64,000 bases of DNA from the NCBI RefSeq assembly GCF_035917275.1, contig NZ_CP108508.1:3534001-3598000 (forward strand), read 5' to 3'. Below are positions 57,490-61,870 of the stretch, piece by piece. The notes beneath the pieces were generated by a model that was not told where the DNA came from, did no database searches, and saw only the letters and a list, made by a program, of their open reading frames with translations. The stretch's first letter is position 1, and the number at the start of each line of letters is the position of its first letter. Made by a program: the position numbers and the translations under genes. Origin of the DNA: Streptomyces sp. NBC_01237 (lineage in GTDB: Bacteria > Actinomycetota > Actinomycetes > Streptomycetales > Streptomycetaceae).

Positions 57490-57904
57490 ACCTGCTCCTC
57501 TTGTCCGCCGGACAAGCACTCCGGGGATTGCCCGTCACCCTCCAGTGGACACCTCCGTATGGGCGGACGCACCAGCTCAGGGCCAGCATTGATGCGTTCT
57601 TGGCCTCCTTGGGCCGCCCTTTGCCCCCGCATGGCGCCGGACAGGGTCGCCCGTGACCGGCCGCGCACCGAGCGCCCTTGCGCGCCGCCCGCACCGGGCT
57701 GAATGCGCCCCGCGCACTACCCCCCGGCCGAGTGAGCGGAATATGCGTTTCCCCAGGCCATTGACTTACGCGAGCGATAAGAATTCACATTCAATTGAAT
57801 GAGTAATTTTCCCGGTCGGCCTATCCGATTTGCGGCTTTACATTTCGTGCATTTCACTCGGACCGTACGCAGAACCCCACTTCCCACAGGACGGGGAACA
57901 ACCC
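57490..57904. other. divergent AT-rich intergenic region before peptide cassette
   Basis: These 415 bp include a strikingly AT-rich stretch (about 57755-57860), unusual in this genome. A promoter and palindrome inside it are listed separately. An open frame from a TTG at 57830 into the peptide gene is judged non-coding. Confidence 0.6.
57761..57801 (+). promoter_or_regulatory. promoter and 14-bp palindromic operator of peptide cassette
   Basis: TTGACT (57761-57766) and TCACAT (57785-57790), spaced 18 bp, make a plausible housekeeping promoter. The perfect palindrome CATTCAATTGAATG (57788-57801) overlaps the -10 and start site, as a repressor site would. The peptide ATG is about 100 nt downstream. 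Confidence 0.55.
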
Positions 57905-58081
57905 ATGTTCACCACCGAATCCACTGCCACCGACATCGAGATCGACCTCGACGCGGCGCTCAACCCGGGCGAGGCCGAAGGCTTCTACCGGGACTCGCGC
58001 GAGTGCGCGTACCTCGCCCTCCTCGGAGGCGGCTCGCTCCTGCTGCTCGCGCCTCCGACCCCCCGCCCGAAGAAGGGCTAG
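57905..58081 (+). CDS. 58-aa acidic/hydrophobic peptide, candidate precursor
   Basis: The peptide has an acidic first half (nine Asp/Glu in residues 1-33, with EIDLDAALNPGEAEGFYRD), a single Cys at 34, a hydrophobic centre with a triple glycine (LALLGGGSLLLLAPP, residues 37-51) and a basic end TPRPKKG. The layout is that of a leader-core precursor, or of a short membrane-active peptide; it has no Sec signal. It starts a tight plus-strand cassette with unknown proteins and a serine hydrolase. The ATG at 57905 follows GGGGAAC. I know no family for it. Confidence 0.6.
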   Translation: MFTTESTATDIEIDLDAALNPGEAEGFYRDSRECAYLALLGGGSLLLLAPPTPRPKKG

Positions 58082-58091
58082 TCGGTAGCAC

Positions 58092-58811
58092 ATGGACCAG
58101 TCACATGCTTCGTCCCCCCTTGCGGGTGCCGTGCATGACCTGGCAACAGAGGTGGTCCTCGCTCTTCGGAGCGGGGACCACCTCGCCATGGTTTGCGGCG
58201 CCGCCGGAATCGACGAGGGAAACCGGACAGGAATTGCCGCGGTACGCGTCATCGGAGCCGATCTGCTGCTGCCCAGTGTTCTGCACGGGCACAATCCGCA
58301 TCCCGGAGACATTGCCGTACTCCACCGTGCCGTGCGGGAATTCCCGCCCCGGCCCGACTCCTCCGACGCCACGGCCTGGAGCCACTGGGGCATGATGTCC
58401 GCCCTGCACCGGACGGCACCGGCCACCACCGCCACCGGACAGCCGCCGGCCGCCGGGCACAGCACCGGCGAACCCGATGCGGCCTGGCTCGAAGCGGCCC
58501 CCTGGCAGGCCTTCACCCATCAGCTCTCCGTACTGGCCCCGCTCGCCGTCCCCGCCGCTTCGTCGGCCGTGCACCGGGCCGCCGCCCACCGGGTCGTCGA
58601 CCTGTCCCGGGGGTTCGTGCGCGCGGTGCGGCGGCGCAACTGGCTCCAGGCGGCGGGAGCCGGCCGCTGGCTGGCCTCGCTGGACGGCCGGCCCGACAGC
58701 CTGGGCCTGGAGCGCGGGCTCGACTTCGTGGAGCTCATGGGCGGCCCGGACCCCCGGGTCATCCTGCATGTGCGGGCGGCCCGGCTCATGGCCGAGGGGC
58801 GGGCGCGGTGA
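58092..58811 (+). CDS. unknown 239-aa protein of the peptide cassette
   Basis: Not recognised. The first half looks alpha/beta (VVLALRSGDHLAMVCGAAGIDEG, AAVRVIGADLLLPSVLHG). A Pro/Ala/Thr linker follows near residues 115-135, then a helical basic half (HRVVDLSRGFVRAVRRRNWLQAAGAGRWLASL). No signal peptide or membrane helix. It begins 10 bp after the peptide stop, and its own stop overlaps the next start (GTGA), so it is co-translated with its neighbours. A leader-binding or scaffold role is possible but unsupported by motif. Confidence 0.65.
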   Translation: MDQSHASSPLAGAVHDLATEVVLALRSGDHLAMVCGAAGIDEGNRTGIAAVRVIGADLLLPSVLHGHNPHPGDIAVLHRAVREFPPRPDSSDATAWSHWGMMSALHRTAPATTATGQPPAAGHSTGEPDAAWLEAAPWQAFTHQLSVLAPLAVPAASSAVHRAAAHRVVDLSRGFVRAVRRRNWLQAAGAGRWLASLDGRPDSLGLERGLDFVELMGGPDPRVILHVRAARLMAEGRAR

Positions 58812-59842
58812 CGGCATCGGCGCCCGCCGGCCTCGGCGCACAGCCCGGCGGCACGGCGGGCGCGGCGCTGTCCGTACTGCCGGGCGTACTGCGCCGCGCG
58901 CTCGGCTGGGCCGACGCCCACCGCTCGGGCTTCGTACTCCCCCAGGACGTACTGGAGCCGCACACCAAGGTCAACGACACCCTCAAACCCCTGGGCGAGC
59001 TGGCCCAGCTCTGCACCACGATCCGCCGCAGCACCGACCCGGACACCCCGGAACACGGGACGGCCGGGGAACTCATCGCCTTCGCGTGGGAGCAGGTGCA
59101 CGACGGCGGCCTGCTGCTGGAGCTGCTGCGCGGCGAACCCTTCGCCGCGTACCCGTACGAGATCTACGCCGCCTTCGCCGGACACGGGCTGCGCCACGAG
59201 GGTTTCGAGCGCCTGGCCGGGACGCTCTCCTCGACCCGGGGCTGGGCCCACACCGAGCAGCACGCCAACCGGGAGCTCGGGCTGATCAACTCGGAGCGGC
59301 GGGTCGGCGCCGCCCCGCACACCGACCCGGGCCCGGTCCTCGCGCGCACCTGGCTGGGCGGGCTGTCCGAGCCATGGATGTTCGAGGGACCCTCCGGCTA
59401 CGCGCTGACCCACACCGTCTTCCACATCACGGACTGGTGCTGTGTCCCCGAGCGGATGCCCCCCGACATCGACGCCTATCTGCGGGCCTGGCTGCCCCCC
59501 TGGGTCGACGGCTGCCTGGAGAGCATGCAGTGGGACCTGACCGGCGAGCTGCTCGCGGTCGCCGCCGCCCTGCCGGGCCAGCCGCCCTCGGCGCTGCTGG
59601 ACGCGGCCTGGCCCGCACTGGCCGCCGCACAGGCGCCGAGCGGCGCCGTACCGGAGACGGGTCCGCCGGTCTCTCCGGAGGATGCCCCGCCGGGTGGTGC
59701 GGGCACCGGTCCGGACCCGTACCCCTTCCTCGCCTGCTACCACTCCACCCTGGTGACCGCGTTCGCCGCAGCCCTGTCCCTGAAGCGGCTCACCGCGCAC
59801 CGGCCGGACGCCGCGACGGCGGAGACCGGGGCCGCCGCATGA
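58808..59842 (+). CDS. unknown protein A, paralogue of 59883-60806
   Basis: This 344-aa helical protein shares an ordered set of motifs with the gene at 59883: LKPLGELAQL (near 55), EPWMFEGPSGY followed by LTHTVFHITDW (about 200-220), a W-P-WVDG...WDLTGELL block and YHSTLVTAFAAAL near the end. Conserved His, Asp and Trp in THTVFH-TDW suggest a metal or cofactor site in an alpha/alpha fold, possibly the uncharacterised actinobacterial DUF6895 family (from memory, unverified). GTG at 58808 overlaps the previous stop. Confidence 0.7.
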   Translation: MTASAPAGLGAQPGGTAGAALSVLPGVLRRALGWADAHRSGFVLPQDVLEPHTKVNDTLKPLGELAQLCTTIRRSTDPDTPEHGTAGELIAFAWEQVHDGGLLLELLRGEPFAAYPYEIYAAFAGHGLRHEGFERLAGTLSSTRGWAHTEQHANRELGLINSERRVGAAPHTDPGPVLARTWLGGLSEPWMFEGPSGYALTHTVFHITDWCCVPERMPPDIDAYLRAWLPPWVDGCLESMQWDLTGELLAVAAALPGQPPSALLDAAWPALAAAQAPSGAVPETGPPVSPEDAPPGGAGTGPDPYPFLACYHSTLVTAFAAALSLKRLTAHRPDAATAETGAAA

Positions 59843-59882
59843 GCCGCATGAGCCGCACCAGCCGCACGAAGGGAGCTGCCGC

Positions 59883-60806
59883 ATGAGCGGCATCCAGCAG
59901 ATCCATGACGTGGGCGCGCGGGCCCTGGGGTGGCTGTACGACCACCGGGCGGGCTTCCGGCTGGACGACGACCCGCCACCCGAGGTGGGTGTCCTGGACC
60001 GGTTCAAGCCGCTCGGCGAGCTGGCCATGATCAGCAAGGTCATCTTCCGGGAGGGGGTCGCCGGTTCCCGGCAGGCCGACCTGGCGCGCAAACTCCTCGA
60101 CCACGCCTGGCACGAACTGCTGGGCTCGGGAGCACGGCTGGTCGACGGCCAGCGGCGCGAACCGCTCTGCCCCATTCCGATGGAGGTCTACGTACCGTTC
60201 CGGGAGCTGGGGTTCCGGGAGCCGTCCCTGGAGGCCGCCGTCCGGTTGAACCACCGGCTGACGAGCTGGGGCGCGCTGGAGGTCGTCCCGGTGCGCCGGC
60301 TCGGACTCAGCGCCGTGGAGCGCCGTTTCGGAGTGGAGCCGAGCATGCCGGTCGACGAGGCGTACCGGCGCACCTGGCTGTCCCGGCGGCCCGAGCCCTG
60401 GACCGTCGAGGGCAACATCGGTTACGACATCACCCACACGGTCTTCCATCTGACCGACTGGGGCGCGAACCCGGCCGGGCTGCCCGCCGAGGTGGCGGAC
60501 TACCTCGCCCTCTGGCTGCCGGTGTGGCTGGACGACTGGCTCGACCTGGGCCGCTGGGACCTGCTGGGCGAACTGCTCGTCGTCGACGCCTGCCTGCCGC
60601 GGCCGACCCTGGACCCGGCCGCCTGGCAGGCGTTCGCCGGGGCACAGCAGCCGGACGGGGCGATGCCGGCGATCGGCGCCATGCCGGAGGGGGACGAGGA
60701 GTCGGTCTTCGACCTCGTCTACCACCCGACGCTGGTGGCCGCGTTCGCCTCGGCGCTGGCCCTGTCCCGCGCCCTGTCCGACCTCGCCGCCCCGGCCCCC
60801 GCGTGA
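59883..60806 (+). CDS. unknown protein B, paralogue of 58808-59842
   Basis: This 307-aa protein has FKPLGELAMI, EPWTVEGNIGY then ITHTVFHLTDW, WLPVWLDDWLDLGRWDLLGELL and YHPTLVAAFASAL in the same order as protein A, so the two arose by duplication and may form a heteromer. Overall identity looks low outside these motifs. ATG at 59883 has AGGGAG 9 nt upstream, after a 40-bp gap made of ATGAGCCGC-like repeats. Its stop overlaps the hydrolase GTG. Confidence 0.7.
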   Translation: MSGIQQIHDVGARALGWLYDHRAGFRLDDDPPPEVGVLDRFKPLGELAMISKVIFREGVAGSRQADLARKLLDHAWHELLGSGARLVDGQRREPLCPIPMEVYVPFRELGFREPSLEAAVRLNHRLTSWGALEVVPVRRLGLSAVERRFGVEPSMPVDEAYRRTWLSRRPEPWTVEGNIGYDITHTVFHLTDWGANPAGLPAEVADYLALWLPVWLDDWLDLGRWDLLGELLVVDACLPRPTLDPAAWQAFAGAQQPDGAMPAIGAMPEGDEESVFDLVYHPTLVAAFASALALSRALSDLAAPAPA

Positions 60807-61870
60807 CGGCGCGGCAGGACGTCCGCCGGGTCCCCACCGGGCGTCCGTCCCGGGACGGCGACGGGGGGACCCGGCTGCTGGCCGACGCCGCCCGGACCAT
60901 CGACTCGCCCGGCCTCGTGATCGCGCTCAGCCACCGGGGCCACCGCACCCTCCAGTACGGCGCCGTGCCGCCCGGCGGCGTACCGCGCGACCGGCTCCAC
61001 TACGAGCTCGGTTCCGCGTCCAAGCCCTTCACCGGGCTGCTGCTCGCCGCACTCGTCGCGGCGGGCCGGGTGCGGTACGAGGACTCGGCGGCCGGACTGC
61101 TGGCACCGGGCCACCCGGTGCATCCCGCCGTGCGCGCCATCACCCTGCGCCATCTGATCACCCACACCTCGGGCCTCCCCGGGGCGCCGGCCGGCTTCTA
61201 CCCGCAGGCGCTGCCCCGGTGGTCCACCGCGCCGTACAGCGGCTACCCGGCCGACCGGGTCGTCCGGGCGTTCCTCCGCGCCCGCCCCCGGCACCGGCCG
61301 GGCACCCGCTGGCACTACTCGAACTTCGCGGTCTCCGTACTCGGGCACACCCTGGCCGCCGCCACCGGCATGCCCTGGGAGGCGCTGCTCCAGCAGGAGG
61401 TGCTGGGCCCGCTCGGGCTGGACGGCACCCGGCCACGCCCGGGGCCGCCGGGCAGCGACGCGGTGGGGCACCGGCGCGACGGCGGTCCGGTGCCCGCGCT
61501 GGACACCGGCGGGTTCACCGCCGCCGGAGCGGTGCGGGCGACCCCGCTGGACCTGCTCACGTTCCTGGAGGCGCACCTTCCGGGTGCCGTGGCGCCCACG
61601 CGTCCGCTGGCCGCCGCCTTCGCGGAGGTACGGCGTCCGCTGCTGCGGCGCGGTCTGCGGCACGCCCACACGCACACGCTGACCTGGTTCCGCCATCCGT
61701 CACCGCGCGGACCGGTGTACTTCCACGCCGGAGCCACACTCGGGCAGCAGGCGTTCCTGGGCTTCCGCCCGGACACCGGCACCGCCGTGGCCGCCGTGAC
61801 CACCCGGCGGGTGCACAGGACCGACCCGTTCATCGCGACGATCCACGGCCTGCTGACGGAACGCCTCTGA
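60803..61870 (+). CDS. serine hydrolase, class C beta-lactamase/DD-peptidase fold
   Basis: This 355-aa enzyme has the SxxK nucleophile in GSASKPFTG (near residue 72), the Tyr-x-Asn element YSNF (near 175) and HAGATLGQQAF in place of the KTG box. The ITLRHLITHTSGLP segment is typical of the family. No signal peptide, so it acts in the cytoplasm, unlike true beta-lactamases. In this cassette it could cleave, transfer or esterify the peptide; that is inference. GTG at 60803 overlaps the previous stop by 4 nt. Confidence 0.85.
   Translation: MTARQDVRRVPTGRPSRDGDGGTRLLADAARTIDSPGLVIALSHRGHRTLQYGAVPPGGVPRDRLHYELGSASKPFTGLLLAALVAAGRVRYEDSAAGLLAPGHPVHPAVRAITLRHLITHTSGLPGAPAGFYPQALPRWSTAPYSGYPADRVVRAFLRARPRHRPGTRWHYSNFAVSVLGHTLAAATGMPWEALLQQEVLGPLGLDGTRPRPGPPGSDAVGHRRDGGPVPALDTGGFTAAGAVRATPLDLLTFLEAHLPGAVAPTRPLAAAFAEVRRPLLRRGLRHAHTHTLTWFRHPSPRGPVYFHAGATLGQQAFLGFRPDTGTAVAAVTTRRVHRTDPFIATIHGLLTERL

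What the first reader, a model, noticed from the sequence alone, without database searches (positions are those of the whole stretch)
57761..61870. Uncharacterised peptide/His-motif protein/serine hydrolase cassette
A 58-aa peptide, a 239-aa unknown protein, two paralogous unknown proteins and a cytoplasmic beta-lactamase-fold hydrolase are coupled by overlaps or short gaps and sit inside an otherwise conserved tatD-rsmI region. No known RiPP enzyme is present, yet the peptide looks like a leader-core precursor. This could be a new peptide modification or signalling system in which the hydrolase acts as a protease or acyltransferase.
Basis: partly seen in the sequence, partly recalled or inferred. 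Interest (0 to 1): 0.82.

Follow-up and report, generated by a model that had tools for sequence, protein, structure and literature searches.

The report
Conserved Streptomyces peptide-maturation gene cassette
Many Streptomyces carry this five-gene cassette, in which a small, strongly conserved peptide is encoded next to two likely peptide-flipping enzymes and a serine hydrolase that probably cuts or closes it, which points to an uncharacterised family of modified peptides.

Summary
The five genes are real: peptide A (58 aa), predicted helical protein B (239 aa), two DUF6895 paralogues (C1, C2) and a serine hydrolase of the S12/beta-lactamase fold (D), tightly packed on one strand.

At 94 cassette loci B lies beside DUF6895 in all 94, D is found in 93 (one contig ends), and an intact peptide gene sits directly upstream of B in 92; the other two hold a frameshifted copy and a truncated remnant. 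A type I peptide profile hits 60 of 199 Streptomyces genomes, and all 61 copies lie 750-1169 bp upstream of a DUF6895 match.

"No known RiPP enzyme" no longer holds: a 2026 paper, seen only as a title in a reference list, reports a DUF6895 epimerase acting on a lasso peptide. The five proteins include no lasso, lanthipeptide, YcaO or radical-SAM enzyme.

Best reading, inferred: A is a leader-core-follower precursor, B recognises it, C1/C2 epimerise core residue(s), and D, from a family with several D-residue-specific members, cleaves or cyclises there. Co-inheritance, selection on A, its anatomy and conserved catalytic residues are shown. Chemistry, product and function are not. My searches of open papers found no description of this cassette.

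The parts
57785..57810 (.). AT-rich stretch upstream of A with the perfect palindrome ATTCAATTGAAT (57789-57800); possible promoter or operator region
   Evidence: The palindrome occurs once in the window. TTCAATT[GA]AA lies 110-137 bp upstream of A in 19 of 65 type I peptide rows; many other loci show a TTGAA element at about -105 by eye.
57888..57896 (+). probable ribosome-binding site of peptide A (AGGACGGGG)
   Evidence: Conserved in the aligned upstream regions of 13 loci; many other type I loci read GGAGATGGT or similar just before the ATG.
57905..58081 (+). Peptide A, 58 aa, candidate precursor: variable N-terminus (1-13), acidic conserved leader (14-35), variable hydrophobic/Gly stretch (36-45/48), near-invariant basic Pro-rich tail SPPTPRPKK[G] (49-58; A49 here)
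   Evidence: 65 type I peptides from 64 loci aligned: E23, P50, P53, R54, P55, K56 65/65; G26, R29, D30, R32, C34 64/65; mean column entropy 2.33 / 0.88 / 1.64 / 0.24 bits for residues 1-13 / 14-35 / 36-45 / 46-57; pooled pN/pS 0.32 among 11 of them.
58092..58811 (+). Protein B, 239 aa, predicted mostly helical, no known family; proposed peptide-binding or scaffold protein
   Evidence: Profile search finds B at exactly the 94 cassette loci (95 ORFs) and at none of the 11 non-cassette DUF6895 loci; R52, D57, W138, R177, R181, R192, W193 93/93, R173 90/93. Model is poor (mean pLDDT 58.5).
58808..59842 (+). C1, DUF6895 protein, 344 aa, candidate peptide epimerase 1
   Evidence: PF21836 E 7.8e-91; retains the family's conserved His positions.
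59883..60806 (+). C2, DUF6895 protein, 307 aa, candidate peptide epimerase 2; predicted (alpha/alpha) barrel with conserved E46, H185, D226, E230, H281
60803..61870 (+). D, S12-type serine hydrolase (beta-lactamase/DD-peptidase fold family), 355 aa, no signal peptide seen; motifs S71xxK74, Y172SN, H308xG; proposed cleaving or cyclising enzyme
   Evidence: PF00144 E 2.3e-46; S71 and K74 90/92, Y172 and S173 92/92, N174 87/92, H308 86/92 aligned domains; found at 93 of 94 cassette loci, the other (L082) ends at a contig edge.
57094..57489 (-). Flanking gene, small protein (131 aa) with weak zinc-ribbon matches, divergent from the cassette; not considered part of it
   Evidence: Only sub-threshold zinc-ribbon matches; a homologue was called in 10 of 63 type I loci.

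Best explanation
The cassette makes a modified peptide (RiPP-like). Peptide A is the precursor: an acidic leader (about residues 14-35), a short hydrophobic/Gly core (about 36-48) and a near-invariant basic tail (SPPTPRPKK) that acts as a follower or recognition tag. B, a predicted helical protein with conserved Arg and Trp residues, binds the acidic leader and presents the peptide. The two DUF6895 enzymes invert one or more core residues from L to D, using a conserved His/acid set inside an (alpha/alpha) barrel. D, a probably cytoplasmic S12-type serine hydrolase, forms an acyl-enzyme at a D-residue near the core/tail boundary (Leu in most copies) and releases the tail by hydrolysis or head-to-tail ring closure. 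Shown: co-inheritance, gene order, selection on the peptide, its anatomy, conserved catalytic residues. Inferred: which chemistry DUF6895 performs here, that A is its substrate, B's role, D's cleavage site and outcome, and the function of the product.
For: Intact peptide gene at 92 of 94 cassette loci; the other two carry a 3'-frameshifted copy (L044) and a truncated remnant (L089). 60 of 199 genomes have the type I peptide, all among the 92 with DUF6895; all 61 copies (one of them the frameshifted L044 copy) are 750-1169 bp upstream of a DUF6895 match. Tandem peptide genes in L061 and two related peptides with consecutive locus tags in one strain (P0025/P0032). pN/pS 0.32. Net charge of residues 14-33 is -3 to -5, of 49-58 +1 to +4. 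DUF6895 has a published lasso-peptide epimerase (title only). H185 171/171, H281 99%. Barrel fold similar to sugar 2-epimerases. D is related by sequence to an alkaline D-peptidase, a DD-carboxypeptidase, ClbP and SurE (6ksu). PBP-type cyclases join a C-terminal D-residue, natively D-Leu for SurE (PMC11735501, passages); ClbP is specific for D-Asn (PMC9889268, passages). Leu at positions 46, 47, 48 in 59, 63 and 55 of 65 peptides.
Against: No product or activity is known. The DUF6895 epimerase report was seen only as a title, that lasso case was not located here, and the cassette DUF6895 proteins form their own clade away from the other DUF6895 groups sampled, so activity may differ. Fold matches are tied with hydrolases and terpene cyclases, and no Foldseek hit is below 0.001. 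Class C beta-lactamases score as well for D as the peptidases do, and not all S12 enzymes need a D-residue. No dedicated exporter or leader peptidase is conserved beside the cassette. The tail, not the putative core, is the most conserved part, so the tail might be the product. D lacks the second domain of PBP-type thioesterases. B's role is a guess; its model is poor.
Confidence: 0.45

Rival explanations
1. A RiPP-type cassette in which DUF6895 does a different reaction from epimerisation (for example cyclisation, dehydration or hydrolysis within the same barrel), with D as an ordinary maturation protease.
For: The barrel fold is shared equally with hydrolases and class II terpene cyclases. 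Distant DUF6895 proteins sit with radical SAM enzymes, a P450, or a methyltransferase and TauD dioxygenase, so the family is used in varied contexts. Two copies in one cassette could mean two different reactions.
Against: The only characterised member named in the papers found is called an epimerase. The His/acid set is shared by cassette and non-cassette members.
Confidence: 0.22
2. A is not a precursor but a small regulatory or structural partner (or an unmodified signal peptide), and B-C-D act on another substrate.
For: The C-terminal tail is almost invariant (mean entropy 0.24 bits), which is unusual for diversifying natural-product cores and fits a binding partner or a conserved signal. 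No transporter is conserved.
Against: Peptides of type I, II and IIb differ greatly in sequence while keeping a hydrophobic stretch that ends in or near LLS. The hydrophobic middle varies between two conserved ends. Tandem peptide copies occur. Conserved cores also occur in RiPP-derived cofactors (recalled: PQQ, mycofactocin).
Confidence: 0.2
3. D is an unrelated beta-lactamase-like resistance or cell-wall enzyme that only happens to lie in the operon.
For: PF00144 and clear similarity to class C beta-lactamases.
Against: D is present at 93 of 94 cassette loci, the exception being a contig end; it overlaps C2 by 4 bp here, has no visible signal peptide, and scores far below the curated cut-off of each of the 25 NCBIfam models shown of 47 hit.
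Confidence: 0.08
4. The cassette is a defence or toxin-antitoxin system.
For: Compact, patchily distributed, found in different genomic sites.
Against: No PADLOC match for any of the five proteins. Two enzyme families plus a co-inherited peptide fit peptide processing better (inference).
Confidence: 0.05

Closest known systems
DUF6895 lasso-peptide epimerase (Shi et al., ACS Catal. 2026, 16:1757; only the title seen, in the reference list of PMC13352647)
   Same: C1 and C2 belong to the same Pfam family, PF21836; both cases concern a ribosomal peptide.
   Different: No lasso-peptide genes among the five proteins; two DUF6895 copies (type I) or one (type II); cassette proteins form a separate clade from the non-cassette DUF6895 proteins sampled.
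MslH, the C-terminal Trp epimerase of lasso peptide MS-271 (PMC10406935, title and start of abstract in a search listing)
   Same: Would work alike: acid/base inversion of a residue in a ribosomal precursor.
   Different: A different protein family (recalled: metallophosphatase-like); here the proposed modified residue lies before a follower-like tail and a hydrolase that may sense D-residues is present.
S12-type D-residue-recognising enzymes: DD-carboxypeptidase (1cef, recalled as R61), alkaline D-peptidase (4y7p), S12 peptidase 3wwx (D-stereospecificity recalled), ClbP, and PBP-type thioesterase SurE
   Same: D has PF00144 and the SxxK, YSN and HxG motifs and is related to all of these by sequence.
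   Different: D shows no signal peptide or membrane anchor (unlike ClbP) and lacks the second, lipocalin-like domain of SurE-type enzymes.
RiPPs with leader-core-follower precursors (bottromycin, cyanobactins; recalled)
   Same: Peptide A shows a variable hydrophobic centre between two conserved ends.
   Different: No YcaO, subtilisin-like macrocyclase, LanM, LanB/C or radical SAM match among the five proteins.

Membership tests
RiPP biosynthetic cassette (general) | a short precursor gene that accompanies the modifying enzymes | tested here: met
   Intact peptide gene directly upstream of B at 92 of 94 cassette loci; 61 of 61 type I peptide hits near a DUF6895 match.
RiPP biosynthetic cassette (general) | the precursor is post-translationally modified and processed | not testable with these tools
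   Needs mass spectrometry or chiral analysis.
RiPP biosynthetic cassette (general) | RRE or other leader-binding element | tested here: inconclusive
   No RRE-type Pfam hit in any of the five proteins. B is a candidate binder but its model is poor. Some RiPP classes lack an RRE (recalled).
DUF6895 (PF21836) | score above the Pfam cut-off over the whole domain | tested here: met
   C1 304.9 bits and C2 293.5 bits against a cut-off of 23.8, covering profile 2-289.
DUF6895 peptide epimerase | catalytic residues of the characterised enzyme | not testable with these tools
   The paper is not held. Family-wide conserved E46, H185, D226, E230, H281 are present.
Lasso peptide cluster | B1/RRE, B2 transglutaminase-like protease, C asparagine-synthetase-like cyclase | tested here: not met
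   None among the five cassette proteins (Pfam). In a comparison of called genes at 84 cassette loci, no family other than A-D is at more than 27 loci.
Lanthipeptide, YcaO or radical-SAM RiPP cluster | LanB/LanC/LanM-type, YcaO or radical SAM enzyme | tested here: not met
   Pfam and NCBIfam scans of the five proteins.
S12 serine peptidases / PF00144 | PF00144 domain with SxxK, YxN and [KH]xG motifs | tested here: met
   E 2.3e-46; all three motifs in the window protein; S71 and K74 90/92, Y172 92/92, H308 86/92 in aligned relatives.
PBP-type thioesterase (SurE-like) | two domains, PBP fold plus C-terminal lipocalin-like domain | tested here: not met
   D is 355 aa with PF00144 over residues 33-337, leaving no room for a second domain; the 6ksu chain is 471 aa; two-domain definition from PMC11735501 passages.
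Class C beta-lactamase | score above a curated NCBIfam cut-off | tested here: not met
   bla_class_C 62.3 bits against a cut-off of 415; none of the 25 models shown (of 47 hit) is reached; best is AmpH, 75.4 against 266.
(alpha/alpha)6 sugar 2-epimerase (AGE/CE) fold | same fold, clearly above unrelated folds | tested here: inconclusive

The most novel reading that the evidence does not exclude
A new class of ribosomal peptides in which epimerisation licenses cleavage: DUF6895 enzymes place a D-residue (for example at Leu47/48) at the end of a hydrophobic core, and a beta-lactamase-fold enzyme that accepts only a D-residue at the acyl position then cuts off a conserved follower and closes the core into a ring. 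Penicillin-binding-protein chemistry would thus be recruited from cell-wall and non-ribosomal pathways to ribosomal peptides. The near-invariant tail and the presence of type I alone in 60 of 199 sampled Streptomyces genomes would fit a conserved signal or cofactor rather than an antibiotic.
Probability: 0.25. Interest if true: 0.87.

Novelty: new variant of a known kind. Interest (0 to 1): 0.7.

Why it matters
The cassette is common (type I peptide in 60 of 199 sampled Streptomyces genomes; DUF6895 in 92 of 199) and well enough defined to mine by gene order, and I found no description of it in the open papers searched. If the peptide is epimerised and then cut or cyclised by a D-residue-specific S12 enzyme, it would link two enzyme families that I did not find described together on ribosomal peptides, give DUF6895 a general role, and offer a short, portable route to D-residue-containing or cyclic peptides. 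A tail this strongly conserved also raises the question of what the peptide does for Streptomyces biology.

Tried and rejected
Lasso, lanthipeptide, YcaO and radical-SAM RiPP classes: rejected, no such enzyme among the five proteins. Defence system: no PADLOC match. Degenerate DUF6895 origin of B: profile comparisons gave probabilities near zero. Fold of B: model too poor to search. Solved relatives of B or C2 by sequence: only chance-level hits. bldA control: no TTA codon in A-D. Lasso genes around distant DUF6895 proteins: Pfam scans of 20 chosen proteins (five of them DUF6895 proteins themselves) from L098, L121 and L126-L130 found none; the neighbours of L081, L092, L093 and L100 were not scanned, so the published lasso case was not located but is not excluded there. 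Papers: searches for DUF6895 (one paper, a reference-list entry), PF21836 (none), the tail PPTPRPKK (none) and four broader lasso/RiPP/epimerase/hydrolase searches (listings only) showed no description of the cassette; subscription journals are mostly not held, and the key DUF6895 paper was not available. Rows dropped: L131 was left out of the DUF6895 alignment because its match was too short (130 residues), and L132 and L133 gave no DUF6895 domain in that search.
Full report
WHAT IS THERE. The window carries, on the + strand, peptide A (57905-58081, 58 aa), protein B (58092-58811, 239 aa), C1 (58808-59842, 344 aa), C2 (59883-60806, 307 aa) and D (60803-61870, 355 aa). Spacing is 10 bp, 4-bp overlap, 40 bp, 4-bp overlap. 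Codon third positions are 84-94% G+C and there are no TTA codons. C1 and C2 are DUF6895 (PF21836), D is PF00144, A and B match no family. Left of the cassette, on the other strand, are an RrnaAD methyltransferase gene (rsmA-like), tatD and a small gene with weak zinc-ribbon matches; right is a tetrapyrrole-methylase-family gene, as expected for rsmI.

DISTRIBUTION. PF21836 occurs in 92 of 199 sampled genomes of the genus, 32 of 394 of the class and 7 of 396 of the phylum; each count includes the window's own genome, and the phylum count includes a hit under the cut-off. I fetched 80 loci from 78 of the 92 genomes; 13 others were not fetched (G004, G019, G027, G041, G050, G069, G093, G102, G111, G112, G162, G182, G197) and G000 is the window itself. 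I added 19 loci mainly from the class search, 5 close loci with names and 3 loci of the plasmid collection. A few loci are near-duplicates (L016 is very close to the window; L017 and L045 share contig length and hits), so counts are of loci, not independent events.

CO-INHERITANCE. With the window there are 94 cassette loci: 65 of type I (A-B-C1-C2-D) and 29 of type II (peptide-B-C-D, one DUF6895). Type I: 64 of 65 have an intact A directly before B; L061 has two copies in tandem; in L044 the peptide frame is shifted at its 3' end. Type II: 28 of 29 have a different but similarly built peptide before B (for example MLTQEIALTATPAQTTTLGALMAEPEAAVSDAPLYTPEAAGFLLALLLLSPKEPKEPRGK); L089 has only a truncated remnant. 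A sub-group (type IIb: L078, L099, L120, L122, L123) has a longer acidic tail. Five type II loci (L120, L122-L125) come from genomes outside the window's family (labels). The B profile finds 95 ORFs at exactly the 94 cassette loci and none at the 11 non-cassette DUF6895 loci; D is found at 93 of 94, L082 ending at a contig edge after C1. Independently, a profile of type I peptides searched over whole genomes hits 60 of 199, every one among the 92 with DUF6895; all 61 copies lie 750-1169 bp upstream of a DUF6895 match on the same strand.

THE PEPTIDE. Among 65 type I peptides from 64 loci, E23, P50, P53, R54, P55 and K56 are invariant and G26, R29, D30, R32 and C34 are in 64 of 65. Mean column entropy is 2.33 bits for residues 1-13, 0.88 for 14-35, 1.64 for 36-45 and 0.24 for 46-57; net charge is -3 to -5 in 14-33 and +1 to +4 in 49-58. 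Pooled pN/pS among 11 relatives is 0.32, and a purine-rich ribosome-binding-like stretch precedes the start in the listed loci. A variable hydrophobic centre between two conserved ends looks like leader-core-follower, although the conserved tail could instead be part of the product. The Cys is replaced by Ser in one copy (L031) and absent from the type II example above, so thiol chemistry is unlikely to be essential. Tandem copies (L061; P0025/P0032, consecutive locus tags) also fit a precursor.

PHYLOGENY. In a tree of 79 DUF6895 domains (subsampled from 171), all cassette proteins (C1, C2, type II) form one group with 100/100 support; C2 and type II are each one group, C1 needs one or two changes, and the 13 non-cassette domains lie outside (long branches make the outside placements unsure). 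The non-cassette members sit beside radical SAM and glycosyltransferase genes (L098), a P450 (L126), or a metalloprotease, methyltransferase and TauD (L128). Four of the 11 loci (L081, L093, L127, L128) also show a small ORF of about 70-90 aa directly upstream, which suggests that DUF6895 may more generally act on ribosomal peptides.

WHAT IS NOT SHOWN. No chemistry, product, export route or function. In the comparison of called genes no transporter or extra enzyme is conserved beside the cassette; the most frequent neighbour is a secreted alpha-lytic-like protease, convergent with D, 13-194 bp after it in 26 of 63 type I loci.

VERDICT. It is filed as a new variant of a known kind (RiPP superfamily, with a family that has one reported epimerase) rather than categorically new, with a bolder reading left open.

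Noticed in passing
L001 9873-11243 and 25 other type I loci, just downstream of D: A secreted alpha-lytic-like protease gene lies convergent with D, 13-194 bp after it, in 26 of 63 type I loci, although the genes beyond it differ (alkaline phosphatase D in some, a Fur-type regulator and KatG-like protein in others). It may be functionally linked or just neighbouring (names from the S. fungicidicus annotation; Fur/KatG recognised by eye).
   Followed up: partly
window 57789-57800: Perfect palindrome ATTCAATTGAAT upstream of A; TTCAATT[GA]AA found in 19 of 65 type I peptide rows at -110 to -137, with a TTGAA-containing element at about -105 in many others by eye.
   Followed up: partly
L081, L093, L127, L128: Distant, non-cassette DUF6895 genes are preceded by small ORFs (about 70-90 aa) of a different type, e.g. 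MSCPP..VDARKALDFLRTSGLVDL; possible other DUF6895 substrates.
   Followed up: partly
L098 and L100: Two DUF6895 domains per locus; radical SAM genes flank them at L098, and L100 looks alike by eye. In one copy of each pair the conserved H281 is Gln.
   Followed up: no
L003 (Kitasatospora fiedleri plasmid 2), L001, L002: A type II cassette lies on a 112-kb plasmid, and type I cassettes lie on a 927-kb and a 1.16-Mb replicon listed as plasmids, so the cassette can be carried on extrachromosomal elements.
   Followed up: no
L061 3625-4214: Two tandem type I peptide genes with identical tails and slightly different centres precede one B-C1-C2-D set.
   Followed up: partly
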